This document shows positions 36,796 through 51,425 of a stretch of DNA of 63,568 nt, one piece after another. Positions within the stretch are counted from its first letter, which is position 1; the number at the start of each line of letters is the position of its first letter. A program made the position numbers and the translations under genes. Origin of the DNA: a virus; IMG/VR virus record IMGVR_UViG_3300021963_006734, positions 1 through 63,568 of that record. The stretch is one strand, 5' to 3'. The notes beneath the pieces were generated by a model. That model did not search any database. It was given only the letters and a program-made list of their open reading frames with translations, and was not told where the DNA came from.

Positions 36796-38382
36796 ATGAA
36801 TACATCAGCACAACAGTTACGAGAAAGAATTAAAGAAGAATACAAAAAATGCGCCATGTCTGCGGAGTATTTTTTAACAAAATATTCATATATTCAACAT
36901 CCGATCCGTGGTCGGGTGTTGTTTAATTTATACAAGTATCAAAAAGAAGCTCTTTTAGATTTTGAAAATCATGAATATAATATTGTTTTAAAAGGAAGAC
37001 AGATTGGTATTTCTACATTAGTTGCTGGATATTCTTTGTGGTTAATGTTATTTCATAACGACAAAAATATCTTAGTTATTGCAACAAAACAAGAAACTGC
37101 TAAAAATCTAGTAACGAAAGTAAAATTTATGCATGATAACTTACCAACTTGGTTACGGGGGTCTATCGTTACTAATAATAAATTATCATTACAATTTGCT
37201 AACGGATCACAGATTAAAGCAGTGGCATCTAGTCCAGACGCTGGTAGATCGGAAGCTCTTTCTCTTTTGATTCTTGACGAAGCCGCGTTTATTGATGCAG
37301 CAGATATAATCTGGACCGCTGCATCAAGTACACTTTCAACGGGTGGACAGGCTATATTATTATCTACTCCAAACGGTGTAGGTAATTTCTTCCATAAAAT
37401 GTGGCAACAAGCAGAGTCTAAAGAAAATAATTTCAATCCAATACTATTGGACTGGCGGGTACACCCAGAACGAGATCAAGCATGGAGAGATCGACAAACT
37501 GAACTGATGGGTGAATTGCAAGCAATACAAGAACATGACGCATCGTTCATATTTTCTGGTAACACGGTTATACCGGCAGAAATTATTGAATTTTACAAAA
37601 GTACCTTTGTTCAAGAACCAATTACCAAAGGTGGATTCGATGGCAATTTGTGGATATGGGAATACGCACAACCAGGAAAATCTTATGTAGTATCCGCCGA
37701 CGTATCTCGTGGTGATGGTGAAGATTATTCTGCATTTCATGTCATAGACATAGAAACCTCCGCACAAGTAGCAGAATATAAGGGGAAAGTAGAAACCAAA
37801 CAGTTTGGTAATATGTTGGTGTCGATAGCAACCGAGTACAATGACGCATTACTTATCCCAGAAAATAGTAGTATTGGATGGAACGCTATACAACAGATTA
37901 TTGATCGTGGATATAAAAATCTCTTTTATATGTCAAAGGATTTACAATATGTGGATGTAGAGCATCAAATGTCTGGAAAGTATCACAAGGAAGAACGAAG
38001 CATGGTACCTGGATTTACCACATCACAACGAACGCGTCCACTAATCATTTCCAGATTAAAAGAGTATATGTTAGAAAATAGTTTTACTATTCGTTCTACT
38101 CGTACATGTGCGGAATTAGAAACTTTTATTTGGAAAAATGGACGGCCGGAAGCTTTGTCTAGTTATAACGATGATTTGATTATGGCTTTGTGTATTGGGC
38201 TTTGGGTACGGGATACAGCGTTACGATTACGACAGGAAGGTATAGAATTAACAAAGTTAGCTATAGAAAAAACGAGATACCAAGTAGAGGGTATGGTATA
38301 TACCAATAATAGACCAAAACAAGATCCTTACAAGATGCAAATTGGTCAAATTACCGAGGATATTAGTTGGTTATTAGATTAA
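36796..38382 (+). CDS. 17: Terminase large subunit gp17
   Basis: 528 residues. It is the ATP-driven motor that packages DNA, with a C-terminal headful nuclease. The ATPase domain has a Walker A-type GRQIGIST (67-74) and Walker B LLILDEAAF (D161-E162). A coupling-motif-like LLSTPNG follows. The nuclease domain has D302 in SADVSRGDGEDY, an acidic PENSS segment and a final YNDDLIMAL motif. T4 gp17 is 610 aa, and this version is shorter at the C-terminus. No small terminase (gp16) is recognisable nearby. Confidence 0.95.
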   Translation: MNTSAQQLRERIKEEYKKCAMSAEYFLTKYSYIQHPIRGRVLFNLYKYQKEALLDFENHEYNIVLKGRQIGISTLVAGYSLWLMLFHNDKNILVIATKQETAKNLVTKVKFMHDNLPTWLRGSIVTNNKLSLQFANGSQIKAVASSPDAGRSEALSLLILDEAAFIDAADIIWTAASSTLSTGGQAILLSTPNGVGNFFHKMWQQAESKENNFNPILLDWRVHPERDQAWRDRQTELMGELQAIQEHDASFIFSGNTVIPAEIIEFYKSTFVQEPITKGGFDGNLWIWEYAQPGKSYVVSADVSRGDGEDYSAFHVIDIETSAQVAEYKGKVETKQFGNMLVSIATEYNDALLIPENSSIGWNAIQQIIDRGYKNLFYMSKDLQYVDVEHQMSGKYHKEERSMVPGFTTSQRTRPLIISRLKEYMLENSFTIRSTRTCAELETFIWKNGRPEALSSYNDDLIMALCIGLWVRDTALRLRQEGIELTKLAIEKTRYQVEGMVYTNNRPKQDPYKMQIGQITEDISWLLD

Positions 38383-38433: not shown

Positions 38434-38724
38434 ATGACGAAAGAAGAAATATTACGCATTATACAAGAAGAAATACAAGCAGTTCTTCAAGAAATGCAAC
38501 AGAAATCCGAAGAAGAATTGGACGAACGAACAGTTGCCAGCCGTGAACCACCCAGAAAAATGACACCAAAGCAAGTTTCTGGACGGGACAAAATTGGTAA
38601 AAAATTATTAGCTAATAAGAGATCTGTAAGTTACTTCAAGAAGAAATTTGGAAAAGATTGGAAATCATATTTGTATGCAACGGCAACAAATAAATCTATA
38701 GATCAAAAAGATAAAAAAAATTAA
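38434..38724 (+). CDS. Small head-region protein with helical leader and basic tail
   Basis: 96 residues. ATG 38434 has GAGG 9 nt upstream and is preferred over a GTG at 38401. The first 30 residues are an amphipathic Glu/Ile-rich helix with several I-x-E and L-x-E sites. The remainder is basic (RKMTPKQVSGRDKIGKKLL, then YFKKKFGKDWKSYLYATATN). This resembles a capsid-targeted internal protein: a leader removed by the prohead protease and a DNA-binding body. First of a run of nine small genes. Confidence 0.7.
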   Translation: MTKEEILRIIQEEIQAVLQEMQQKSEEELDERTVASREPPRKMTPKQVSGRDKIGKKLLANKRSVSYFKKKFGKDWKSYLYATATNKSIDQKDKKN

Positions 38725-38725
38725 T

Positions 38726-39031
38726 ATGAGATATAAAGATTTTTTTTCTGAACTATGCTGTGAAGGTTGTGGATGTGATCATTCTAACAACGAAGAGTAT
38801 CCATTTAGTGGTTATAAAATTACCCAAGCAGACATAGACGCGGATGAAAAAACCGTGCATAGTGTTGGTGAATACAAAAAACAGCACAAGAGAAGAGATC
38901 CTATGGGTCAAGAAGATGCTGATGTAAATAATGATGGTAAAATAGATTTAACGGATAAGATGTTGCGAGCCAAACGAGATTTATATAGACGGTATTTAAT
39001 AGCAAAAAAGAAAGGACAGACATCGTTCTAA
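38726..39031 (+). CDS. Putative internal head protein with EF-hand loop
   Basis: 101 residues. It begins MRYKDFFSE, a leader shared with neighbours, with predicted cleavage after E9. A Cys-rich segment follows (LCCEGCGCDH) and then a 12-residue calcium-loop match, DVNNDGKIDLTD, as in dockerins and EF-hands. The C-terminus is basic (RAKRDLYRRYLIAKKKG). It starts 1 nt after the previous stop. Confidence 0.75.
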   Translation: MRYKDFFSELCCEGCGCDHSNNEEYPFSGYKITQADIDADEKTVHSVGEYKKQHKRRDPMGQEDADVNNDGKIDLTDKMLRAKRDLYRRYLIAKKKGQTSF

Positions 39032-39049
39032 ACAATTTGGAGAAGTAAT

Positions 39050-39481
39050 ATGATTAGACTTATGGGATTGGTAGCTGGTATAAAAGGAATCGGTGATAAG
39101 CCAGTTGGCGCTGTGAAGGAAGCTCTTGATGCCGTTGGTAAGGAAGATGGTGATATTGATAACGATGGTGATAAGGATTCCTCAGACAAGTATTTAAAAG
39201 CTCGTCGTGATGCCATCGCTAAGGCAATGGAAAAGAAAGAAGAAATCGGACCTAAAGACAAAATTGATTCCGGTGAATATGATTATGAAGGCGATATGGC
39301 AAAGAATCAATTACAAACTATTATCAGAAATGCACAAATGTTGCATGATATGTTGTCGGATGATACCAACTTACCAGAATGGGTGCAAAACAAGATTTCG
39401 TTAGCCAAGGAATATACCGAATCTGCTGCACAATATATCAGTAGTGAAAAGGACCAAACAACATCTACAGGAACAATGTAA
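39050..39481 (+). CDS. EF-hand-loop head protein with LPEWVQ domain
   Basis: 143 residues. The N-terminal 33 residues look like a leader ending in Glu-rich sites (VKE, GKE). A perfect EF-hand loop [12 protein letters not shown] is followed by [13 protein letters not shown]. The C-terminal helical domain ([19 protein letters not shown], then AAQYISSE) is one I recall from many marine myophages and is of unknown function. SD GGAGAAG. The ATG of the next gene overlaps the stop by 1 nt. Confidence 0.75.
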
Positions 39482-39843
39482 TGGAAACGGTAGCAAAGTT
39501 TTTGTCCACACTATTCAATAGTCGTGACCAAGCACATATCTTCCATTTGCAAACATCGTCGTATGCTGCTCATAAAGCATTGAATGAATATTATGATGAA
39601 ATTGTAGATTTGGTAGATACATACGCAGAAACTTACCAAGGTCGTTACGGTATTATTCGTGGTTATACACCACAAAAACAATACTTTGAAGGTGATGAAG
39701 TAGTGAAGTATTTTACTGGATTATCAACTTATATTGATAGTGTTCGTAAGGGATTACCGCAAGATGGTGATCTTAATAATATCGTTGATGAAATTTCGGG
39801 GTTGGTCAATTCAACAATATACAAGTTAAAATTCTTAAAATAA
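39481..39843 (+). CDS. Helical DUF5856-like protein
   Basis: 120 residues, all helical, with HIFHLQTSSYAAHKALNEYY and a DLVDTYAETYQGRYG segment. The spacing of His/Glu residues recalls ferritin-like or Dps-like helical bundles, and phage proteins of this type are filed as DUF5856. If the fold is right, it could bind metal or protect DNA. It has no capsid-targeting leader, unlike most neighbours. Confidence 0.7.
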   Translation: METVAKFLSTLFNSRDQAHIFHLQTSSYAAHKALNEYYDEIVDLVDTYAETYQGRYGIIRGYTPQKQYFEGDEVVKYFTGLSTYIDSVRKGLPQDGDLNNIVDEISGLVNSTIYKLKFLK

Positions 39844-39844
39844 T

Positions 39845-40087
39845 ATGAAATATACAGACTTTTTCTCGGAACAACTAACAGTACGATTGGACGAAGAAAC
39901 TACAAAGAGAATACAAGAAGTAATTTCTTTATTAGAAAAAAATATTCCAACAAGTCCTGATAAATGGGCACGAGCAAAGGCAGCCGCTCGTTCCAAATTT
40001 AAAGTATATCCATCTGCGTACGCCAATCTCTGGGCAGCTAAGAAATATAAGAGTATGGGTGGTGGGTGGAAAAAAGGAAAAAAGTGA
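39845..40087 (+). CDS. Putative internal head protein, basic C-terminus
   Basis: 80 residues. The leader MKYTDFFSE is almost identical to that of 38726, with predicted cleavage after E9. The C-terminal domain (SPDKWARAKAAARSKFKVYP and ANLWAAKKYKSMGGGWKK) is a basic module common in aquatic phages. Loss of the leader would leave a small DNA-binding protein. Its stop overlaps the next start. Confidence 0.78.
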   Translation: MKYTDFFSEQLTVRLDEETTKRIQEVISLLEKNIPTSPDKWARAKAAARSKFKVYPSAYANLWAAKKYKSMGGGWKKGKK

Positions 40088-40239
40088 TTAAGTTAGTAGA
40101 TATTATTTTGGAAAGATGGACAAAAAAATATAAAAAGTCCATAAACTGTAGTAATCCAAAAGGTTTCTCCCAGAAAGCACATTGTGCGGGACGAAGAAAA
40201 AGAAAACGCGGTGGTAAAACCAAATCAAAACCAATATGA
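40084..40239 (+). CDS. 51-aa basic internal protein (GTG start)
   Basis: GTG at 40084 overlaps the previous stop (GTGA). The product begins MIKLVDIILE, the same leader type as its neighbours, and continues with SINCSNPKGFSQKAHCAG and then a run of Arg/Lys to the end. The Cys/His spacing (C...H-C) could bind zinc. It is too short for many gene finders. The 4-nt overlaps at both ends and the shared leader make it a real gene. Confidence 0.8.
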   Translation: MIKLVDIILERWTKKYKKSINCSNPKGFSQKAHCAGRRKRKRGGKTKSKPI

Positions 40240-40562
40240 TACTTTTAGCAGATTTACTAGAAGAAGTAATTGATGAACTTGACGAACGATATAAAACTAA
40301 GGGTAACTTAGGAAAGTGGCTTCGTCAAAAATGGGTGGATATATCCAGAACAGATAGAAAAACTGGAAAACATCCCCCATGTGGCGCTTCTGCTGGTAAA
40401 AAGGAAAGACGGGGAGGATCTGCAAAATATCCAAAATGTAGACCAGCTCGATCAGCCGCAGCAATGAGTAAAGGTGAAAAACGATCCGCTGTTGTTAGAA
40501 AAAGAAAAGCAGGAAACCCAGGTGGAAAACCAACAATGGTTTCTACCTTTAAAAAGAAGTAA
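40236..40562 (+). CDS. DUF6321-like basic protein with leader
   Basis: 108 residues. The leader MILLADLLEE fits the shared pattern. The body carries KWLRQKWVDISRTDRKTGKH, PPCGASAGKK, YPKCRPARSAAAMSKGEKRS and GGKPTMVST, the order seen in the DUF6321-type phage family. It is strongly basic and probably binds DNA. It overlaps the preceding 51-aa gene by 4 nt. Confidence 0.8.
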   Translation: MILLADLLEEVIDELDERYKTKGNLGKWLRQKWVDISRTDRKTGKHPPCGASAGKKERRGGSAKYPKCRPARSAAAMSKGEKRSAVVRKRKAGNPGGKPTMVSTFKKK

Positions 40563-40585
40563 GACTCTTGACATTGAGAGATACT

Positions 40586-41083
40586 ATGATTAGATTAACA
40601 GATATCCTATGTGAATCTTGTTGGGATGGATATAAACAAGTTGGTATGAAGGAACTTAACGGTAAAATGGTACCAAATTGTGTTCCAGTAGAGGAACTTT
40701 ACCACCGTCCAGAAAGTGATGTTACATCAGACGATGAATTAACAGAAGGTGAATTCTGTAATGAATGTCTAATTGAAGTTCTTGATGGATTACACGAAAA
40801 TCAACTTGGTGAAGCAGAATATCACGGCCGTAAGGTTCCTCTTGGTAAAATTATGAGAGGTGATGTCAAGAAGTTTAAGGTATATGTTCGTGATCCAAAG
40901 AGTGGAAATATCAAGAAAGTTAATTTTGGTCATGGTGGAACTTCAGCAAAACGCCGTGGTGAAAAGACCATGAAGATTAAAAAGAACATTCCTTCTCGTC
41001 GTAAATCATTCCGTGCAAGACATCGTTGTTCAACTGCAAAAGATAGAACTTCTGCTCGTTATTGGGCATGTCGTACTTGGTAA
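40586..41083 (+). CDS. Two-module internal head protein (CWxGYK + DUF5872-like)
   Basis: 165 residues. ATG 40586 follows GAGAG and is preferred over a TTG at 40568. The leader MIRLTDILCE is followed by CWDGYKQVGMKELNGKMVPNC, which I break here as CWDGYKQVGM and GKMVPNCVP. After an acidic linker comes KKFKVYVRDPKSGNIKKVNF and a C-terminal RRKSFRARHRC...RYWACRTW, as in DUF5872-type phage proteins. Two widespread phage modules are joined behind one leader. Confidence 0.78.
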   Translation: MIRLTDILCESCWDGYKQVGMKELNGKMVPNCVPVEELYHRPESDVTSDDELTEGEFCNECLIEVLDGLHENQLGEAEYHGRKVPLGKIMRGDVKKFKVYVRDPKSGNIKKVNFGHGGTSAKRRGEKTMKIKKNIPSRRKSFRARHRCSTAKDRTSARYWACRTW

Positions 41084-41087
41084 TAAT

Positions 41088-41444
41088 ATGAAAAAGAAAA
41101 TTTCACGGGAACAATCCGACAAGATATTAGATAAAATGGGTTATAAGTTTAACCCAACAGAATTCTTTTTAGGAATGAATACAGAATTAGAACACCAAGA
41201 TGTAACTAATGGAAATGTGTTGACAACGGCAAAAATTGCCGCAGCACATCTTAAAGAAAATCCAAAGTATTATTCATTATTATTAAAGCATGTAGAAAAA
41301 ACTAATGAGCAACTTGGTGGGATAGCAGGAGCATCACCAACCGCGTCGGGTCTAGTAGCACCTGGTGGTTATATTCGTGGAGCACCAAAACCAAAAGATG
41401 TTAAGAAAATGCGAGTACGACTCGACAAGGAGAAATCACAATGA
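41088..41444 (+). CDS. DUF5661-like phage protein
   Basis: 118 residues. ATG 41088 lies just after the previous stop; the upstream in-frame ATG at 41013 would run through the preceding gene and is rejected. Core motif: FNPTEFFLGMNTELEHQDVT, then TAKIAAAHLKENPKYYSLL, as in DUF5661 proteins. The His/Glu residues could bind metal. No leader of the shared type is present, and the C-terminus is basic. Confidence 0.75.
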   Translation: MKKKISREQSDKILDKMGYKFNPTEFFLGMNTELEHQDVTNGNVLTTAKIAAAHLKENPKYYSLLLKHVEKTNEQLGGIAGASPTASGLVAPGGYIRGAPKPKDVKKMRVRLDKEKSQ

Positions 41445-41794
41445 TTAAATTAAGTAATATTTTGTTGAACGAAGCTGGAAAAGAAAATCGTATCATTCCA
41501 ACTCGTTTAGTAGTAATACTAGAAAAATGTATGGGTGAGTTAAAAGAGTCAGATCAAAAACAAATCACAGAATTATTATCTCGTGTATTAGAAGGAATTA
41601 CCAAAGTTAATGAAATGCCATATAATTATAATACTATGACTACATGGCAAATGACTCAATTAGCTGAAGTTGAAGCACCTATAGCAATTCTCCGAGAAAA
41701 GTTAAATAACTTAATAACAAGTAAATCCACGAAAGTTAATGTAGAAACTGTTCGTCAAGCTGTGAAAGCATTGGACGAATTATATATATACTAA
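41441..41794 (+). CDS. Helical head-region protein with leader
   Basis: 117 residues. It begins MIKLSNILLNE-A, matching the leader pattern and giving a predicted site LLNE|A like that of the capsid protein. The rest is a helical bundle without known family. It overlaps the previous stop by 4 nt and precedes the portal by 13 nt. Confidence 0.75.
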   Translation: MIKLSNILLNEAGKENRIIPTRLVVILEKCMGELKESDQKQITELLSRVLEGITKVNEMPYNYNTMTTWQMTQLAEVEAPIAILREKLNNLITSKSTKVNVETVRQAVKALDELYIY

Positions 41795-41807
41795 AAGCTG
41801 AGGGATT

Positions 41808-43706
41808 ATGGCAGATACATCATTATTTGGTAGATTAAAGAGACTTTTTTCTACCAACACCGTTGTAAGAAATATCGGTGGAAAAAAATTAAAAGTAGCC
41901 GATACTGATAATATCCAAGCGTTTGTTAATAGACGAGGTATAGATCGTTATCATCGCGTGTACTCGTCATTGACGGGTGGATATGGATCTTCACACGGGC
42001 GATACGAAGCTGCCGCTGCATTCCAAGGATCACGATTACAGTTATTCCGTGATTATGATATGATGGACAACGATCCCATCATCTCATCGGTATTGGACAT
42101 TTATGCAGATGAAAGTACAATCAAAGATGAATTTGGACAGATATTAAGTATTAAAGCAAAAAATCAAAATGTTCAAGAAATTTTACATAATTTATTTTAT
42201 GATATTTTAAATGTAGAGTTTAATCTCTGGCCGTGGGTTCGTAACATGGCAAAGTACGGAGATTTCTTTTTATATTTAGATTTAGATGAAGAATATGGTG
42301 TAGTTAATGCTATACCGTTATCTGTTTATGAAACCATTCGTATCGAAGGCGAACAACCCGACCAACCATTCAGTGTGCGATTCAAAATCGAAAATGATTT
42401 CTTGCGACTAGGCAAGACAGATTTCGAAAATTTTGAAATTGCACATTTTCGTTTATTAGCCGATACAAATTTTCTTCCCTATGGAAAAGCCATGATTGAA
42501 GGTGGTCGTCGTGTCTGGAAACAACTCCAGCTTATGGAAGATGCGATGTTAATTCATCGTATTATGCGAGCACCGGATAAGCGTAAAATTTTAGTAGATA
42601 TTGGCAATATCCCGCCGGCAGAAATTGATACCTTCATGAATCGTGTAATGGATCGCATGAAAAAAACTCCGTTGGTGGATCCACAAACAGGAGATTATAA
42701 CCTTCGTTATAACATGCAGAATATTACAGAGGATTTTTATCTTCCTGTCCGCGGCAAAGACTCAGGAACCGATATTCAAAATCTTCCTGGATTGCAATTC
42801 AATGCAATCGAAGATATTGAATATTTAAGAAACAAATTAATGGCTGCGTTTAAAGTCCCTAAATCATTTATAGGATATGAAGAAGATATTAATGGAAAAG
42901 CTACGCTGGCTGCACAAGATGTGCGATTTGCTCGTACAATTGAACGCATCCAACGAATTATGGTATCGGAATTAACTAAAATTGCTATTGTACATTTGTA
43001 TATCCAAGGGTTCCGTGACGAAGAATTAGTTGATTTTGAACTAAGTTTGACATCACCTTCTATTGTATATGAACAAGAAAAACTCAATATGTGGAAGGAA
43101 AAGGTACAAGTTGCAAACGATATGATGGGTACCAAACTAATATCACAAGATTGGATCTACCATAATATATTTGAAATGTCGGAAGAAATGGCTAATGAAG
43201 AACGCAGTAAAGTCATGAATGATGTCAAACGAATGGCCGAACTTACTAGATTGGAACAAGAGGCATCACAACCACAACAAACGGGAACTCCTACCGGAGA
43301 AACACCACCAGAAGAAACATCACCAGAAGAAACACCATCGTCGGAAGAAGAAGAACAACAAATTGATGATGTAGATACGATTCTTGCATCATTAGAAACT
43401 GGTGATGAAGAAAGTGAACTAGAAGAAATTCCAGAAGAAGAATTGGAAGAAGCCAAGATGGGTAGACCAAAAACTGGAATGTCATACGGTCAAGATAGTC
43501 ACCCTAGAGGAAGAGATCCACTGGGTAGTAAAGAAAATAGTGATGTGTTGTCTGTAGGTAAAAAGCGAAACGATAAACGCAAGTCTCCGTTGGCATTAGA
43601 ATTACAATCTTTCTTTGGTAAAAAGAATAATAAAAAAATTATTATGGAATCACAAGAAACTGGTTCTTTTTTAGATGAAAATAATATTTTAGACCTTGAA
43701 AACTAA
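41808..43706 (+). CDS. 20: Portal vertex protein gp20
   Basis: 632 residues. It forms the dodecameric DNA gate and nucleates prohead assembly. T4-type motifs include RYHRVYSSLTGGYGSSHGR near the start, DNDPIISSVLDIYADEST, the long clip/stem region, LPGLQFNAIEDIEYLRNKL and AAFKVPKSFIGYE. The C-terminal 120 residues are an acidic Glu/Pro linker and a basic GRPKTGMSYG end that are poorly conserved in this family. T4 gp20 is 524 aa. SD GAGGGA. Confidence 0.95.
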   Translation: MADTSLFGRLKRLFSTNTVVRNIGGKKLKVADTDNIQAFVNRRGIDRYHRVYSSLTGGYGSSHGRYEAAAAFQGSRLQLFRDYDMMDNDPIISSVLDIYADESTIKDEFGQILSIKAKNQNVQEILHNLFYDILNVEFNLWPWVRNMAKYGDFFLYLDLDEEYGVVNAIPLSVYETIRIEGEQPDQPFSVRFKIENDFLRLGKTDFENFEIAHFRLLADTNFLPYGKAMIEGGRRVWKQLQLMEDAMLIHRIMRAPDKRKILVDIGNIPPAEIDTFMNRVMDRMKKTPLVDPQTGDYNLRYNMQNITEDFYLPVRGKDSGTDIQNLPGLQFNAIEDIEYLRNKLMAAFKVPKSFIGYEEDINGKATLAAQDVRFARTIERIQRIMVSELTKIAIVHLYIQGFRDEELVDFELSLTSPSIVYEQEKLNMWKEKVQVANDMMGTKLISQDWIYHNIFEMSEEMANEERSKVMNDVKRMAELTRLEQEASQPQQTGTPTGETPPEETSPEETPSSEEEEQQIDDVDTILASLETGDEESELEEIPEEELEEAKMGRPKTGMSYGQDSHPRGRDPLGSKENSDVLSVGKKRNDKRKSPLALELQSFFGKKNNKKIIMESQETGSFLDENNILDLEN

Positions 43707-43711
43707 AGTCT

Positions 43712-43719
43712 TATAAATA
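43712..43719 (+). promoter_or_regulatory. T4-orientation late box TATAAATA
   Basis: TATAAATA, the classical T4 late -10, 30 nt before the ATG at 43750. It is the only gene in the window with the box in this orientation; other copies read TATTTATA. Confidence 0.5.
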
Positions 43720-43749
43720 TTCGTTATATTTAATATATGACGGTATAAT

Positions 43750-44646
43750 ATGTCACAAAATGGAATACATATGAAATCAAACGTCAGACACAACAAAATT
43801 CGTAATACGGGCATTCTTTTCGAATTATTAGTCCGTAAAATTACTTCCGACGCATTGGAAAACCGTAAAAGTGATACGGCTATAAAACTTATGCGAGAAT
43901 ACTTCAATTCTAAAACAGAATTGGGTAAAGAATTAATACTCTATAGATCATTTTTCAATGTTCAGAACCTGAGTGAAGAAAAAGCATTTCAGTTGGTCGG
44001 ATTAATTTCCGAACAACGAAAGAGACTAAATGAAAATATGCTCAGTACACAAAAATATAATTTAATTAAAGAAATTAAAAAGTTTTACGATTTAAAAGAA
44101 TTCTTGGATGCAAGAATTCCTTCGTATAAAGTGTACGCGTCAATTTATAAAATGTTTGACGGGATGATTAACGAAATTACAGACTACGCAGAAATAGACA
44201 GTTTAGTTTCTGCAAAGTTTACTATAGTAGAGCATCTTACGGGTAATCTTGTTAATAAAGAAATAAAAAATGATACCCAATTATTTGAAACATTAAAGGC
44301 ACAAGAAGAAGATTTACGACTATTATCCTATCGTATATTAATAGAAAGATTTAATGAAAAGTATGCAGGATTAAATGACAGACAAAAAAATTTACTACGA
44401 GAATATATTTACAATGTATCAAATGGTGAACAGTTAAAAAAATACGCTGTAAAGGAAGCAGAACAACTTGTTAATGAATTAAAAATAAAAACCAAATTTG
44501 TAGATAACAAGATTACCCGTATTAAATTGTCTGAAGTTATCACACAACTAGAAAAAATTCGTTCGGTTAACATAGTAAAAGAAAATCATATGACTGCATT
44601 ACTCATTGCTTTGGAAATTACTAAAGCAATAGACACTAGAAAATAA
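43750..44646 (+). CDS. Head assembly protein (RHNKIRNTG family)
   Basis: 298 residues, helical and charged. The N-terminus RHNKIRNTGILFELLVRKIT is a signature I associate with T4-like phages, located between portal and prohead protease. An in-frame ATG at 43771 is an alternative start. It is likely a prohead core or assembly factor in the place occupied by gp67/gp68 in T4, though no homology to those is visible. Confidence 0.7.
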   Translation: MSQNGIHMKSNVRHNKIRNTGILFELLVRKITSDALENRKSDTAIKLMREYFNSKTELGKELILYRSFFNVQNLSEEKAFQLVGLISEQRKRLNENMLSTQKYNLIKEIKKFYDLKEFLDARIPSYKVYASIYKMFDGMINEITDYAEIDSLVSAKFTIVEHLTGNLVNKEIKNDTQLFETLKAQEEDLRLLSYRILIERFNEKYAGLNDRQKNLLREYIYNVSNGEQLKKYAVKEAEQLVNELKIKTKFVDNKITRIKLSEVITQLEKIRSVNIVKENHMTALLIALEITKAIDTRK

Positions 44647-44656
44647 GAGTTAACCT

Positions 44657-45154
44657 ATGAATCAACACGATAGACTCAGAGAAATGATCCGACAAATGAT
44701 CAGATCACAGTTAGAAGAAATGACCACCACTTCTGCTGTTCCTGGATACCTTACCCCGTATGCATTTCGAGGTAATAAAAAAGCATCGGTAGATAGAGCA
44801 AAACACATTGCAACCGACACAACAGGATTTAAATTAACTCCTCGTGGTGAAAAGGATATAAATCGTCCCGCCGATAAGATGGAAATCGTCACAAAAGATA
44901 TAAATGAAAATAAATATTATGAATATAAAAATGATGTGACGAAATCACCACATAGAAAAATTGCAGACGCCATTTCTCATTTAAATAAAAATTTACACGA
45001 AATAGAACGGGTAATAAAAATGAACGCTCGATTAAAAAATGAGTCGGGTATAACAAGTGAACAACTATGGAAGCGTACACAGCAAGGATTATTGAAGTTG
45101 GAATCCAAACTTCTTTCTATTGCAACACGCATCCGTGAAATTCGTGGACAATAA
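44657..45154 (+). CDS. Prohead core-like protein
   Basis: 165 residues. It begins with an amphipathic helix (REMIRQMIRSQLEE) ending in an L-x-E site, followed by MTTTSAVPGYLTPYAF, a motif I recall from many marine T4-like head proteins. The rest is basic and helical. A leader removed by gp21 is plausible. It lies 1 nt before the protease gene. Confidence 0.68.
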   Translation: MNQHDRLREMIRQMIRSQLEEMTTTSAVPGYLTPYAFRGNKKASVDRAKHIATDTTGFKLTPRGEKDINRPADKMEIVTKDINENKYYEYKNDVTKSPHRKIADAISHLNKNLHEIERVIKMNARLKNESGITSEQLWKRTQQGLLKLESKLLSIATRIREIRGQ

Positions 45155-45155
45155 T

Positions 45156-45743
45156 ATGCAAACACTTTTAGTTGAATATAATGTCATTTCATATGACAAC
45201 ACTTTATTAAACGAAGCAATGGATATAAGTAAACCACTCGTATTAAAAGATGTGGTATTACAAAGAGCCGATCACAAAAATCAAAACGGAAGAGTATATC
45301 CAAAAGATATATTAGCACGTGAAGCGGCAGTATACAAACAGAACTTCGTGGTACAGCGCAGAGCATTAGGAGAACTTGACCATCCAGAAAGTCCTGTAGT
45401 CAATCTAAAAAATGTATGCTGTAATGTAACAGATTTGTGGTTTGAAGGAACTGATGTAAAGGGAAATATTGAAATTCTTTCTACTCCATCTGGTAATATT
45501 GTTCGTGAATTAATTAAGAATAACATCCGATTGGGTGTTTCATCCCGTGGTATGGGATCGGTAAAACAAATTGGTGAAAGTACAGTTGAGGTCGGTGAAG
45601 ACTTTAATCTAATTTGTTTTGATATCGTAAGTAATCCATCAACACATGGTGCATTTATAAATGAAAATGCAGATAGTAAAATCGTAACACCATACTCTCG
45701 TATTGATGCATTAATTTACGATTTCTTGGGTGAATTAAAATAA
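45156..45743 (+). CDS. 21: Prohead maturation protease gp21
   Basis: 195 residues. It is a herpesvirus-type serine protease that cleaves scaffold, capsid and internal proteins after Glu. Catalytic H76 (GELDHPE) and the Ser in GVSSRGMGS (about 129-130) are visible. ATG 45156 is chosen; the ORF extends upstream into the previous gene. Self-processing may occur at LLNE20|A21. The other members of its presumed substrate set surround it. Confidence 0.93.
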   Translation: MQTLLVEYNVISYDNTLLNEAMDISKPLVLKDVVLQRADHKNQNGRVYPKDILAREAAVYKQNFVVQRRALGELDHPESPVVNLKNVCCNVTDLWFEGTDVKGNIEILSTPSGNIVRELIKNNIRLGVSSRGMGSVKQIGESTVEVGEDFNLICFDIVSNPSTHGAFINENADSKIVTPYSRIDALIYDFLGELK

Positions 45744-45762
45744 TCTTTAAAAGGAGTTGTTT

Positions 45763-46011
45763 ATGTTAACAGTTTTGGTTGTAGTTCTACTTGTATTTGG
45801 TATTGCATATTGGTTACACAAAAATAATCAACCAGTATTTACGCGATCAGTAAATAAGGTAGAAACCGTTGTTAAAGATGTTGTAGATGTAAATAATGAT
45901 GGTAAGGTAGATGTTAAGGATGCGGTAGAAGCAGTAAAGAAAGTAAAAAAGGCTGCAAAAATCACAGCAGAAAAAGTGAAAAAGACTGCAGGTCGTAAGA
46001 AGAAAAACTAA
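45763..46011 (+). CDS. Membrane-anchored EF-hand-loop protein with Lys-rich tail
   Basis: 82 residues. ATG 45763 has AAGGAG 7 nt upstream. One N-terminal hydrophobic helix (2-18) is followed by a linker and a perfect calcium-loop match DVNNDGKVDVKD. The C-terminus is Lys/Ala-rich (AAKITAEKVKKTAGRKKKN). It shares the loop with 38726 and 39050 but has a membrane helix in place of the leader. Role unknown; perhaps membrane-attached prohead assembly. Confidence 0.72.
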   Translation: MLTVLVVVLLVFGIAYWLHKNNQPVFTRSVNKVETVVKDVVDVNNDGKVDVKDAVEAVKKVKKAAKITAEKVKKTAGRKKKN

Positions 46012-46013
46012 TC

Positions 46014-46385
46014 ATGAAATTAATGGATTTATTATACGAAATTCATAATAAAGCCATTGTACATGACTTTGTAAAATTCGTTGCTCGGGAATTACAATTA
46101 AGTCATTTACCCAAAAAAATTCGTTTAACTAACGAACCGTTGGGACATACATTTGGAACTTATACACCAGATGCAGATGAATTGTACATATATGTTGGTA
46201 AACGACACATTGCCGATGTATTGCGTACCTTAGCACACGAATTGGTTCACCACAAGCAAATGGAACAAGATATTGAACCGGATGGTAGTGATGGATCCTC
46301 TGTAGAAAATGAAGCAAATGCGGTAGCAGGTACATTGATGCGAAAATATCGATATTCACATCCGGAAATATATTTGGAGAAGTAA
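46014..46385 (+). CDS. Zinc metallopeptidase, putatively packaged in the head
   Basis: 123 residues. H75-E76-L77-V78-H79 (LAHELVHHKQ) is a zincin active site, with E98 or E100 (VENEANAVAG) as third-ligand candidates. The N-terminus MKLMDLLYE matches the capsid-targeting leader of its neighbours. Inside the virion it could help processing or be injected to cut a host protein. Target unknown. The glutamate and both histidines are intact. Confidence 0.82.
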   Translation: MKLMDLLYEIHNKAIVHDFVKFVARELQLSHLPKKIRLTNEPLGHTFGTYTPDADELYIYVGKRHIADVLRTLAHELVHHKQMEQDIEPDGSDGSSVENEANAVAGTLMRKYRYSHPEIYLEK

Positions 46386-46386
46386 C

Positions 46387-47624: not shown

Positions 47625-47843
47625 ATGCATGTAGAAGTAAAGGGAGATGGGAAGGACGATTTGGAAAAAGCATTACGAGTATTTACTCGAATGGTAAAGA
47701 AAGCAGAGATAGTCAATGAAGTTAAAAGACGAGAATTCTATGTTAAACGATCAAAGAAAAAAATACTAAAACAACAAGAAGCACTTCGTAAAAGAATTCG
47801 AGAAGAGAAAAAAGTAGAAAAAAGAAAAAACTCGGATTGGTAA
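47625..47843 (+). CDS. Ribosomal protein bS21 homologue
   Basis: 72 residues, matching bS21 in length and pattern: MHVEVKGDGKDDLEKALRVF, a basic middle (TRMVKKAEIVNEVKRREFY) and a KKKILKQQEALRKRIR tail. bS21 sits near the anti-SD helix of the 30S subunit and is the ribosomal protein most often carried by phages. The phage copy may replace the host one and bias translation. Leader CGAAAGGGGGTTTT before the ATG is identical to that of 53992. Confidence 0.88.
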   Translation: MHVEVKGDGKDDLEKALRVFTRMVKKAEIVNEVKRREFYVKRSKKKILKQQEALRKRIREEKKVEKRKNSDW

Positions 47844-47972: not shown

Positions 47973-49148
47973 ATGGCAGAAATTTCAAATCAACTTCTAA
48001 GAGATGCTATCGCAGATGCAGAAGCAGTTCGTCAAACCGCTATTGCAAACGCAAAGATCGCTTTGGAAGAAACATTTACACCTCAAATTAAGTCCATGTT
48101 GGCTCGCCGATTAAAGGCAGAAGCAATGGAAGCAGAAGGTGCAGAAAAGGCAAAGGAAGAACCATTCCAAGACGCAGACGCAGTTGGAGGAAATACTCCA
48201 GTTGATACATCAACAATTGGTGCTGGTGATAATAAAGAACCATCACCTGCAGCAAACGATTCATCCGACATAGATCAAGGAGGTGAAGGTGAATCAGACT
48301 CGTCAACTGACTGGTACGATGACTGGTCGGAATCGGATTTTGATCTTGATGAAGTAATCAAGGAATTGGAAGCAGATGTACAAGCACTTTCGGAAGCTGA
48401 AGAAGAGGAAGAAGAACTCGACGAAGCTATGCACGATGGTGAAGAAGAGGAAGAAGTGGATGAATATAAACTTGGAGAAGATGACAAATTACCGTCAGCT
48501 TCACCAGCAGATGTTCATGACAAAGAAGTTCCAGCACAATCCTCTGGTATCGGTAAGTCAGAAGCAGCTGCAACAGATGCATCCGATCCACATAAGTACG
48601 CAGTAAATCCAGCAAATCCAAAGATGGAAATGCATATGGATGGGGACACGGAAAAAGGTCATGAAGAAGGTGAAGAGGAACTTGATCTTGAAGCAATCCT
48701 TCGTGAATTAGAAGCCGAAGATGAAAAGGAAAAGAAATCATCCGAAGAAATGGCTCATAAGATGGATTCGCTACAAAAGGAACTTGCAGAATATCGTATG
48801 GTTGTAAATGTCCTACGAGGCAAGCTACAAGAAGTAAATCTTCTTAATGCAAAACTTTTGTTCACCAATAGATTGTTTAATAACAAGACATTGACCAACG
48901 AACAGAAAGTTGCAATTGTGGAAAACTTTGATAGAGCAACCACAGTGCGTGAAGTTAAGATTGTCTATACAACACTTGTTGAAACTCTCAATACAACAGC
49001 AAAGGCAATGAAGCGTCCAGCAAACACTGCTAAAGTTGTAACAGAAGGTTTAGCAAGTAAGGCAACCCCAAGTACAGCTCCAAAAGCTGAAATTTTGGAA
49101 GAAAATACTCTCGCAAAGAGATTACAACAACTCGCAGGCATTTTATAA
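47973..49148 (+). CDS. 22: Prohead core scaffold gp22
   Basis: 391 residues, very acidic in the middle (about 100-260, Glu/Asp runs) with helical ends. It lies directly before the capsid gene, as gp22 does in T4. gp22 forms the inner core on which gp23 assembles and is then degraded by gp21; several L-x-E sites are present. It is longer than T4 gp22 (269 aa) mainly through the acidic inserts. SD TGGAGA. Confidence 0.88.
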   Translation: MAEISNQLLRDAIADAEAVRQTAIANAKIALEETFTPQIKSMLARRLKAEAMEAEGAEKAKEEPFQDADAVGGNTPVDTSTIGAGDNKEPSPAANDSSDIDQGGEGESDSSTDWYDDWSESDFDLDEVIKELEADVQALSEAEEEEEELDEAMHDGEEEEEVDEYKLGEDDKLPSASPADVHDKEVPAQSSGIGKSEAAATDASDPHKYAVNPANPKMEMHMDGDTEKGHEEGEEELDLEAILRELEAEDEKEKKSSEEMAHKMDSLQKELAEYRMVVNVLRGKLQEVNLLNAKLLFTNRLFNNKTLTNEQKVAIVENFDRATTVREVKIVYTTLVETLNTTAKAMKRPANTAKVVTEGLASKATPSTAPKAEILEENTLAKRLQQLAGIL

Positions 49149-49168: not shown

Positions 49169-50749
49169 ATGTCAGGTGTACAAGAATTTTTAGATGACGC
49201 TGGTTCAGCCCACAAAGTTGTGGTAGAAAAGACCCGTCAATTAGCAGGTAAGTGGGAAAAGTCAGGCCTTCTTGAAGGTTTGGCCGGACAAGAACGCCAA
49301 GGTATGGCGGTTATGCTTGAAAACCAAGCACAACAACTTCTTTCAGAAGCAACAACAACAAATCCAGGTGGATCAGGCACAGCTGGTGAAAACTGGGCAG
49401 GTGTCGCACTTCCATTAGTTCGTAAGGTATTCGGTTCAATCGCAAGTAAGAACTTCGTATCAGTACAACCAATGAACTTACCAGCAGGTTTGGTATTCTT
49501 CATGGATTTCAAGTATGCAAACACAGTAAATGGTAAGACAGCAGGTGGTTCACTTTATGGAACAACATCTGGTTCAGGCGTTCTTCCACGTGGTGGTTTC
49601 TACGGTGCTGGTGAATACGCATACTCAGTAAATGATGCAACATTAACACTCAACCCAGCAATCGCATCAGGTTCAGCAGTTGGTTATGGTGATGTAAACT
49701 ACAACGATACTTACTCATCATCATTTGCATCATTCTTCAAGTTCGTTGTTCCAGCAGTAAGTTTCTCAAACGCAGATTTCAACGCAGTTCGTTCATTCCG
49801 CGTAACAACAAATGTAGCAAACAGTGCACTTCTTCCAGAATTCACCAAGTATGACGGAACAAATGTTACACTTATCGTAAGTGGAACATCAGCTCTTGGT
49901 TCAATGGTATCTTGTTCAGCAGTAGAATATAACAAGCAACCAACAGACACCACCCGTGGTGACTTCGAAGATCGTGATAACTCAGTAACAAACTTGAACA
50001 TTCCACAAATTGATTTGGAACTTCGTTCAGAAACAATCGTTGCTAAGACCCGTAAGTTGAAGGCAGTCTGGTCACCAGAACTTGCACAAGACTTGAACGC
50101 ATACCACTCAGTAGATGCAGAAGCAGAATTAACAGCAATGTTAAGTGACTACATCTCAACTGAAATTGACCTCGAAATTCTTGATATGTTGATTGCAAAC
50201 GCAACCACAACAGAATTCTGGAACGCAGAAGTCGGTAAGGTATGGAACGGTTCAGCATTCGTACCAAGTGCAACATTGAGTGGACAAGCATGGACATCAA
50301 TGACCTGGTTCCAAACACTTGGTCAGAAGATGCAAAAGGTCAGTAACCGTATCCACCAACTCACAATGCGTGGTGGTGCTAACTTCGCAGTATGTTCACC
50401 AACTGTAGCAACAATCCTCGAAACCATTCCTGGTTTCATGGCAGCAACAGACGGTGATAAGATGGAATTTGCAGGTGGTGTAACCAAGGTTGGTTCATTC
50501 CAAAATCGTTACACAATCTACAAGAACCCATACATGACCGAAAATACATTGTTGATGGGCTTCCGTGGAAGTAACTTCCTCGAAACTGGTGCAGTATATG
50601 CTCCATATATCCCACTCATCATGACACCATTGGTCTATGATCCAAATAACTTCACACCACGCCGTGGCGTGATGACCCGTTACGCGAAGAAGATAGTCAG
50701 ACCCGAATTTTTTGGAAAAATCTTTATCGACGGACTCGCAACAGTCTAA
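49169..50749 (+). CDS. 23: Major capsid protein gp23
   Basis: 526 residues (T4: 521). The N-terminal 60 residues form the delta region, with predicted gp21 cleavage LLSE60|A61. HK97-fold features follow: NWAGVALPLVRKVFGSIASKNFVSVQPM, then PAGLVFFMDFKYA and, near the end, YAKKIVRPEFFGKIFIDGL. Codon use is visibly more GC-rich and regular than in neighbours, as expected for a highly expressed gene. SD TTAGGAG. Confidence 0.97.
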   Translation: MSGVQEFLDDAGSAHKVVVEKTRQLAGKWEKSGLLEGLAGQERQGMAVMLENQAQQLLSEATTTNPGGSGTAGENWAGVALPLVRKVFGSIASKNFVSVQPMNLPAGLVFFMDFKYANTVNGKTAGGSLYGTTSGSGVLPRGGFYGAGEYAYSVNDATLTLNPAIASGSAVGYGDVNYNDTYSSSFASFFKFVVPAVSFSNADFNAVRSFRVTTNVANSALLPEFTKYDGTNVTLIVSGTSALGSMVSCSAVEYNKQPTDTTRGDFEDRDNSVTNLNIPQIDLELRSETIVAKTRKLKAVWSPELAQDLNAYHSVDAEAELTAMLSDYISTEIDLEILDMLIANATTTEFWNAEVGKVWNGSAFVPSATLSGQAWTSMTWFQTLGQKMQKVSNRIHQLTMRGGANFAVCSPTVATILETIPGFMAATDGDKMEFAGGVTKVGSFQNRYTIYKNPYMTENTLLMGFRGSNFLETGAVYAPYIPLIMTPLVYDPNNFTPRRGVMTRYAKKIVRPEFFGKIFIDGLATV

Positions 50750-50861: not shown

Positions 50862-51425
50862 ATGGAACATGTGATTTATAAATTAACATCACCGAGTGGA
50901 AAAATTTATATTGGTCGTACAAATAATTTTCAAGACAGAATGACGCAGCATAAACACTGTGCGTTAGTAAAAAAAATGAATAATTCTTTGTATAAAGCCA
51001 TGAGAAAGTATGGGTGGGAAAATTTTGTAAAAGAAATAATTGCTACCGCAAGTAGTCAAGAATCTGCTCAATTATTAGAAGAAGTATTAATTAAGCAATT
51101 TGATTCTGTTAAAAATGGATACAATGACACATATACCGGCGGTGGTGGAAATCAATTCGTAAATCAACCAGAACGATTAAAAACTTTTAAGAAAAAAATG
51201 TCACAAATTACTGCTGGTGACAAAAATGGCATGTATGGTAAGACACATAGTGACGAAGCACGGGAAAAACAAAAACAAAAAGCAAAAGGACGATTCTCGT
51301 TGGAATGGTATATTGACCGATATGGACAAAACGAAGGAACACAGTTATATACGAAACGATGTGAAAATTTGCGTAATCGTAAGTTGAATCGAAATGAAAA
51401 GGGTATATTTATTCCTTCGTTATAA
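50862..51425 (+). CDS. Free-standing GIY-YIG homing endonuclease (Seg-like)
   Basis: 187 residues. The GIY-YIG core appears as VIY (4-6) and YIG (16-18), with conserved R26 and a Glu in LLEEVLIKQ. A NUMOD3-type DNA-binding motif (GDKNGMYGKTHSDEAREK) follows, then a basic C-terminus. It sits alone between terminator and neck operon with its own late box and SD, as T4 seg genes do. It probably spreads by cutting phages lacking it near gp23 or gp13. ATG 50862 is chosen over an upstream in-frame start inside gp23. Confidence 0.88.
   Translation: MEHVIYKLTSPSGKIYIGRTNNFQDRMTQHKHCALVKKMNNSLYKAMRKYGWENFVKEIIATASSQESAQLLEEVLIKQFDSVKNGYNDTYTGGGGNQFVNQPERLKTFKKKMSQITAGDKNGMYGKTHSDEAREKQKQKAKGRFSLEWYIDRYGQNEGTQLYTKRCENLRNRKLNRNEKGIFIPSL

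What the first reader, a model, noticed from the sequence alone, without database searches (positions are those of the whole stretch)
38434..46385. A family of small proteins sharing a capsid-targeting-like leader: a modular internal-protein cargo system
Seven products begin with the same pattern M-[KRI]-x-[LY]-x-[DN]-[FIL]-[FIL]-x-E: MRYKDFFSE (38726), MKYTDFFSE (39845), MIKLVDIILE (40084), MILLADLLEE (40236), MIRLTDILCE (40586), MIKLSNILLNE (41441) and MKLMDLLYE (46014). Behind this leader the bodies are unrelated: basic DNA-binding tails, an EF-hand loop, Cys modules, a helical bundle and a zinc peptidase. Known T4 internal proteins (IPI-III, Alt) carry a similar short leader ending in a gp21 site. 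The genes cluster between terminase and scaffold, around portal and gp21. Inference: they are loaded in the prohead, cleaved after Glu, and injected with DNA, so the leader acts as a tag onto which new effectors are fused.
Basis: partly seen in the sequence, partly recalled or inferred. Interest (0 to 1): 0.88.

Follow-up and report, generated by a model that had tools for sequence, protein, structure and literature searches.

The report
Phage cargo tags around capsid genes
Seven small proteins of an uncultured T4-like phage start with the same short tag, which by comparison with T4 and marine relatives very probably loads otherwise unrelated proteins into the new virus head and is then cut off, so the tag shows which proteins a phage carries inside its particle.

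Summary
Seven genes between terminase and scaffold share a 9-11 residue leader, and no other of 69 called genes has it (shuffle mean 0.47). The leader has the register mapped for the T4 capsid targeting sequence: hydrophobic residues at 4, 7 and 8, Glu at 10. The phage encodes a gp21-family prohead protease.

(1) The same body carries a different leader in each phage lineage: MIKLVDIILE| here, MKSFKQFQE| or MKTFKQFQE| in cyanophages. Leaderless copies start with Met exactly at the inferred cut. (2) Three of these modules also occur inside long proteins, where a hydrophobic-x-Glu site sits at the module border (9/9, 7/11 and 32/40 internal junctions), as in a polyprotein. (3) In the published virion proteome of cyanophage S-CREM2, the Kyanoviridae form of the leader marks 6 of 28 nonstructural virion proteins and 0 of 167 undetected ones (p = 5e-6).

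So this is a T4-type capsid-targeting system with a lineage-specific tag. The principle is known from T4; the dialect, leader exchange, polyprotein form and link to virion proteomes appear new. Cleavage and injection in this phage are inferred. The zinc peptidase is the weakest case.

The parts
38726..39031 (+). Leader MRYKDFFSE (38726-38752) + Cys-rich and EF-hand/dockerin-like body
   Evidence: EF-hand stretch hits phrog_4359 and Dockerin_1 below cut-off; orthologues also have the site shifted, e.g. YIFE|DCGC
39845..40087 (+). Leader MKYTDFFSE (39845-39871) + basic body (phrog_27331), net +10
40084..40239 (+). Leader MIKLVDIILE (40084-40113, GTG start) + basic module B (WTKKYKKSINCSNPKGFSQKAHCAG), net +15
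   Evidence: same body with other leaders in cyanophages; junction test
40236..40562 (+). Leader MILLADLLEE (40236-40265) + basic body phrog_23735, net +18
   Evidence: leader pattern in 19 of 21 homologues
40586..41083 (+). Leader MIRLTDILCE (40586-40615) + Cys module A + linker with second site LGE|A (40805-40813) + basic module E (phrog_7595)
   Evidence: junction tests on modules A and E
41441..41794 (+). Leader MIKLSNILLNE (41441-41473) + helical body
   Evidence: leader Glu one of 8 invariant columns at down to 23% identity; leader modelled as a separate low-confidence helix
46014..46385 (+). Leader MKLMDLLYE (46014-46040) + HExxH zinc peptidase; weakest member
45156..45743 (+). gp21-family prohead protease, with a possible self-cleavage site LLNE|A (Glu ends at 45215)
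   Evidence: phrog_207 E=6.3e-49; LLxE|A conserved in relatives
49169..50749 (+). Major capsid protein: leader-like start MSGVQEFLDD (E at position 10 in most relatives) and predicted cut LLSE|A after residue 60 (49346-49348)
44657..45154 (+). Longer helical leader type (21 residues, SQLEE|M; LDE|A in relatives) + body
   Evidence: inferred to be a second leader class
38434..38724 (+). Similar longer helical N-terminus (MTKEEILRIIQEEIQAVLQE) + basic body, net +8
   Evidence: inferred

Best explanation
The leader is a T4-type capsid targeting sequence in a lineage-specific dialect. (1) The hydrophobic face of the 9-11 residue leader binds the assembling scaffold core, perhaps at the site used by the start of the capsid protein, which looks like the leader (inferred). 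(2) The gp21-family protease cuts after the leader Glu at the motif hydrophobic-x-Glu, releasing mature, mostly basic small proteins into the head (strongly supported by comparison, not shown biochemically here). (3) Any body fused behind the tag is packaged; bodies are exchanged between lineages while each lineage keeps its own tag (exchange shown by sequence, packaging inferred). (4) In other phages the same modules are strung in one chain with a cleavage site at each border (shown by sequence; processing inferred). (5) The cargo stays with the DNA and enters the host at infection (inferred from T4, about 60% likely).
For: Register equals the mutational map of the T4 targeting sequence (PMC9026906; T4 sequences). 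gp21-family protease in the same operon. Same body with different leaders in different lineages. Hydrophobic-x-Glu exactly at module borders, internal and N-terminal. Leaderless copies start with Met at the inferred cut; HTVC026P and Kolga, complete genomes with such copies, lack gp21 and Gp23. Leader Glu invariant while the body falls to 23% identity. Virion proteome of S-CREM2: 6/28 against 0/167, 6/28 against 11/167 with the untuned rule. S-SM1 virion protein T4-GC190 begins MKKFSAFLNE|A.
Against: No proteomics for this lineage. About half of the homologues of 46014 lack the leader, and its leader is modelled as one helix with the body. Several large contigs with the border site have no detected gp21. 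Contexts in the junction test are not phylogenetically independent. The tighter S-CREM2 rule was chosen after seeing the looser one, and most S-CREM2 virion proteins of unknown function have no leader.
Confidence: 0.85

Rival explanations
1. The leader targets or anchors the proteins in the head but is not cut; the Glu is part of the binding helix.
For: Targeting and processing are separable in T4: Asp at position 10 blocks processing but not targeting (PMC9026906). In 46014 the leader is modelled as continuous with a body helix.
Against: Glu and the hydrophobic P3 also sit at internal module borders where no N-terminal targeting is possible, and leaderless copies begin exactly at the inferred cut.
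Confidence: 0.08
2. These are scaffold-core components, like T4 gp67 and gp68, that are cut up and expelled, not cargo kept in the virion or injected.
For: They lie around portal and protease, where T4 has genes 67 and 68, and most bodies are small and without a recognised enzyme.
Against: T4 core proteins are cut into pieces, whereas here the bodies are conserved modules behind one site. Relatives place enzymes behind the same kind of leader and these are found in virions.
Confidence: 0.25
3. The shared N-terminus only reflects duplication of one small gene, or an assembly role unrelated to the protease.
For: The MIxLxxIL leaders of neighbouring genes are also similar as DNA, and the genes are tightly coupled.
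Against: The bodies belong to different families, the same body bears unrelated leaders elsewhere, and virion enzymes of S-CREM2 share only the leader.
Confidence: 0.04
4. The Glu at the border is an intrinsic residue of the domains and no cleavage site.
For: It is very constant (43/45, 68/80).
Against: Leaderless copies have Met at that place, three unrelated modules show the same hydrophobic-x-Glu, and in module A the site shifts by 1-4 residues.
Confidence: 0.04

Closest known systems
Phage T4 internal proteins IPI, IPII, IPIII and Alt with their capsid targeting sequences, cut by gp21 (reviewed in PMC9026906; PMC12373910)
   Same: Short N-terminal leader shared by unrelated bodies, same hydrophobic register, Glu at the end, gp21-family protease, mostly small basic bodies
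   Different: Leader sequence MIxLxDILxE or MxYxDFFxE instead of MKTYQEFIAE; genes sit around portal and protease instead of in separate hypervariable loci; bodies are modules traded with marine phages; some are two-site proteins
Virion-associated enzymes of cyanophages (S-CREM2, PMC10665884; S-SM1, PMC3037559)
   Same: Leaders of the T4 form (MKNFSSFLTE|A, MKKFSAFLNE|A) on proteins detected in virions; shared small modules
   Different: Cargo includes SAM hydrolase, kinase, Cas9-like nuclease and cytidylyltransferase; leader not described by the authors
SPN3US / phiKZ head proteins with propeptides (PMC5694885) and P1 DarB (PMC9024508)
   Same: N-terminal signals that bring proteins into the prohead; removed by a prohead protease in SPN3US
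   Different: SPN3US propeptides are mostly over 100 residues; in P1 the first 30 residues suffice; sequences unrelated

Membership tests
T4-type capsid targeting sequence / internal proteins | One short N-terminal leader on several unrelated bodies | tested here: met
   Seven leaders, different body families
T4-type capsid targeting sequence / internal proteins | Hydrophobic residues at 4, 7 and 8 and Glu at 10 (L/I-x-E) | tested here: met
   Rule from T4 data returns the same seven; register shifted by one in the 9-mers and by an insertion in 41441; P3 is Phe in 38726 and 39845
T4-type capsid targeting sequence / internal proteins | gp21-family prohead protease in the same phage | tested here: met
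   45156-45743, phrog_207 E=6.3e-49
T4-type capsid targeting sequence / internal proteins | Present in the virion | not testable with these tools
   No proteome for this lineage; indirect support from S-CREM2 and S-SM1
T4-type capsid targeting sequence / internal proteins | Cut after the leader Glu | not testable with these tools
   Comparative support only: border sites and Met starts
T4-type capsid targeting sequence / internal proteins | Injected with the DNA | not testable with these tools
   Known for T4 IPs (PMC12373910)
SPN3US/phiKZ-type head propeptides | Propeptides mostly of 100 residues or more | tested here: not met
   Leaders here are 9-11 residues; family feature from PMC5694885

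The most novel reading that the evidence does not exclude
T4-like phages of very different hosts share a common stock of small, mostly basic modules that are loaded into the capsid, either one by one behind a lineage-specific leader or as polyproteins that the prohead protease cuts at each module border. The leader and border sites would then read out, from sequence alone, which proteins a phage carries inside its virion.
Probability: 0.6. Interest if true: 0.78.

Novelty: new variant of a known kind. Interest (0 to 1): 0.62.

Why it matters
Most proteins inside phage heads are unknown, and they are among the first foreign proteins a host meets. A leader rule that works across T4-like lineages turns many unannotated small genes into predicted virion cargo. 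It bears on published lists of unexplained virion enzymes: the S-CREM2 authors could not tell packaged proteins from contaminants, and the leader marks the SAM hydrolase, the kinase and the cytidylyltransferase, with a shifted form in the Cas9-like nuclease. Each leader could also be tested as a packaging tag in its own phage.

Tried and rejected
DNA near-identity search for the region found only one short hit. PF03420 was uninformative because it rang nowhere. Peptidase S78 as the alternative protease in large contigs without gp21: no match above cut-off, so the protease of those contigs is open. A synonymous/nonsynonymous comparison of leader codons was mixed: leader more constrained than the next residues for 39845, no clear difference for 40586 and 40236, and no usable sequences for 41441 because my filter was wrong; I rely on invariance of the Glu instead. 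Fold search for 41441 gave no match at E <= 0.001; the top named hit is an Avd-like protein. Pfam hits to the basic bodies are below cut-off.

Full report
WHAT THE WINDOW IS. The window is a 63.6 kb viral record, a fragment. It carries a T4-like head and tail block: terminase 36796-38382, portal 41808-43706, gp21-family protease 45156-45743 (phrog_207, E = 6e-49), a scaffold-position gene 47973-49148 (by synteny only) and the major capsid protein 49169-50749. The nearest named portals are Microcystis phage Mel-JY01 (53.5%) and Flavobacterium phage immuto (51%), so this is a distant T4-like lineage. Eighty environmental relatives were fetched by their protease.

THE OBSERVATION. Seven genes begin with MRYKDFFSE, MKYTDFFSE, MIKLVDIILE, MILLADLLEE, MIRLTDILCE, MIKLSNILLNE and MKLMDLLYE. 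Among 69 called genes no other fits, against a shuffle mean of 0.47. T4 mutational work places targeting mainly at residues 4 and 7 and processing at 8 and 10 (PMC9026906). T4 IPII and IPIII (MKTYQEFIAE|A) and gp24 (MAKINELLRE|S), read from the T4 genome, share this register with the window leaders. A rule built from the T4 data returns the same seven (mean by shuffling 1.11).

LEADER AND BODY EVOLVE SEPARATELY. The body of 40084 (WTKKYKKSINCSNPKGFSQKAHCAG) occurs in Synechococcus phage Bellamy as MKSFKQFQE|SWSNKYKKSIDC..., in SynMITS9220M01 as MKTFKQFQE|GWSNKYKKSIDC..., and inside longer proteins of S-SM2 (RKTFEEFRE|SWSNKYKK) and P-TIM68 (KRMNE|GWSDKYKK). The leader therefore follows the phage lineage, not the body. 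Flavobacterium phage immuto has yet another recurring N-terminus, of the form FDLKKFLVENKLTxNSxLLKE, on a gene annotated as cob(I)alamin adenosyltransferase and on others. Conversely, orthologues of 41441 fall to 23% identity while the leader Glu stays one of only 8 invariant columns.

THE JUNCTION TEST. Module-based scans of viral contigs gave distinct upstream contexts for three modules. The residue before the module is Glu in 43 of 45 (B), 26 of 40 (A) and 68 of 80 (E); background Glu is 6-8%. For strictly internal junctions the exact hydrophobic-x-Glu site is present in 9 of 9, 7 of 11 and 32 of 40 (p from 5e-9 to 2e-30 against the site density of the protein or its upstream linker). Module E mostly reads L/M/I-x-E|A, close to the canonical gp21 site. 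Copies without any leader begin with Met exactly where the Glu would be (M|AKYKGR, M|AWSKKYKK, M|AEYRGRKV). Two of these are in complete named genomes (HTVC026P and Kolga), and neither has a gp21 or Gp23 match. This makes it unlikely that the Glu belongs to the domain fold. The window protein 40586 has both kinds of site: ILCE|SCWDGY and QLGE|AEYHGR. Limits: contexts are not phylogenetically independent, and several large contigs with the site show no gp21 match.

VIRION DATA FROM RELATIVES. The published proteome of S-CREM2 (PMC10665884) was compared with all 219 annotated proteins. With the general rule the leader is in 6 of 28 nonstructural virion proteins and 11 of 167 undetected ones (p = 0.02). 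With Phe at the second hydrophobic position, as in T4 and the cyanophage leaders, it is in 6 of 28 and 0 of 167 (p = 5e-6); this tightening was made after the first result. The six are a SAM hydrolase, a kinase, a cytidylyltransferase and three unknown proteins. The Cas9-like virion protein carries LRFASFMAE|A at residues 17-25, reminiscent of the longer IPI leader. The S-SM1 virion protein T4-GC190 (PMC3037559) begins MKKFSAFLNE|A. The S-CREM2 paper mentions neither a leader nor targeting, and its authors left open whether these proteins are contaminants.

WEAK POINTS. The zinc peptidase 46014 keeps a leader in about 18 of 46 homologues, a weaker form in 5, and none in about 23, most of which carry a C-terminal part related to the neighbouring gene 46387. 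Its model has one helix through residues 3-26 (mean pLDDT 91), so the cut would fall in a helix. The best folds are IrrE, minigluzincins and Wss1-like proteases, at weak E-values. In contrast, the leader of 41441 is modelled as a separate low-confidence helix. No proteomics exist for this lineage here; cleavage and injection are inferred.

MECHANISM. Most likely the leader docks on the scaffold core during head assembly. The major capsid protein itself begins with a leader-like stretch (MSGVSEFINE|AGSAH in relatives; Asp at position 10 in the window), so cargo may use the same dock as the shell protein (inference). The protease then cuts after Glu, perhaps also at its own LLNE|A, at LLSE|A of the capsid protein and at LEE|A of the portal tail (sequence, inference). 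Mature cargo is mostly basic (net charge +10 to +18 for four whole products) and would stay with the DNA. Whether it condenses DNA or acts in the host is open; in T4, Ip1-3 inhibit Type IV restriction enzymes (PMC12373910).

NOVELTY. That T4-like phages use a leader to load various proteins is established (PMC9026906, PMC12373910). New here, as far as the held literature shows, are the lineage dialects, the exchange of leaders on constant bodies, the polyprotein form with sites at module borders, and the agreement of the leader with cyanophage virion proteomes. I therefore call it a new variant of a known kind.

Noticed in passing
window 43452-43703: The portal protein ends in a tail of 84 residues, AKMGRPKTGMSYGQDSHPRGRDPLG..., preceded in all relatives looked at by a conserved (E/D)LEE. 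The portal may be cut there by the prohead protease.
   Followed up: partly
L002 3806-4354, 17631-18632, 18632-18931: Flavobacterium phage immuto has its own recurring N-terminus (FDLKKFLVENKLTxNSxLLKE) on several proteins near terminase, one annotated as cob(I)alamin adenosyltransferase.
   Followed up: partly
L084 4156-6012: Synechococcus phage Bellamy gp123 strings at least four small Cys/basic modules with hydrophobic-x-Glu sites at several borders, like a polyprotein.
   Followed up: partly
L255 7704-10313: The Cas9-like virion protein of S-CREM2 has a leader-like stretch LRFASFMAE|A at residues 17-25, which suggests it is packaged as cargo.
   Followed up: partly
window 39050-39481: The product starts [16 protein letters not shown], similar to the leader at its first residues but without the Glu, and conserved in relatives; it also has an EF-hand-like module.
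   Followed up: no
window 39035-39049 and 46372-46386: Nearly identical 15-base stretches, ATTTGGAGAAGTAAT and ATTTGGAGAAGTAAC, lie directly upstream of two start codons.
   Followed up: no
window 50862-51425: An ORF behind the major capsid gene starts like a GIY-YIG homing endonuclease (MEHVIYKLTSPSGKIYIGRTNN); only its own copy was found among the relatives.
   Followed up: no
window 47625-47843: A small protein matches phage ribosomal protein S21 homologues (phrog_21469), also present next to the protease in Mel-JY01.
   Followed up: no
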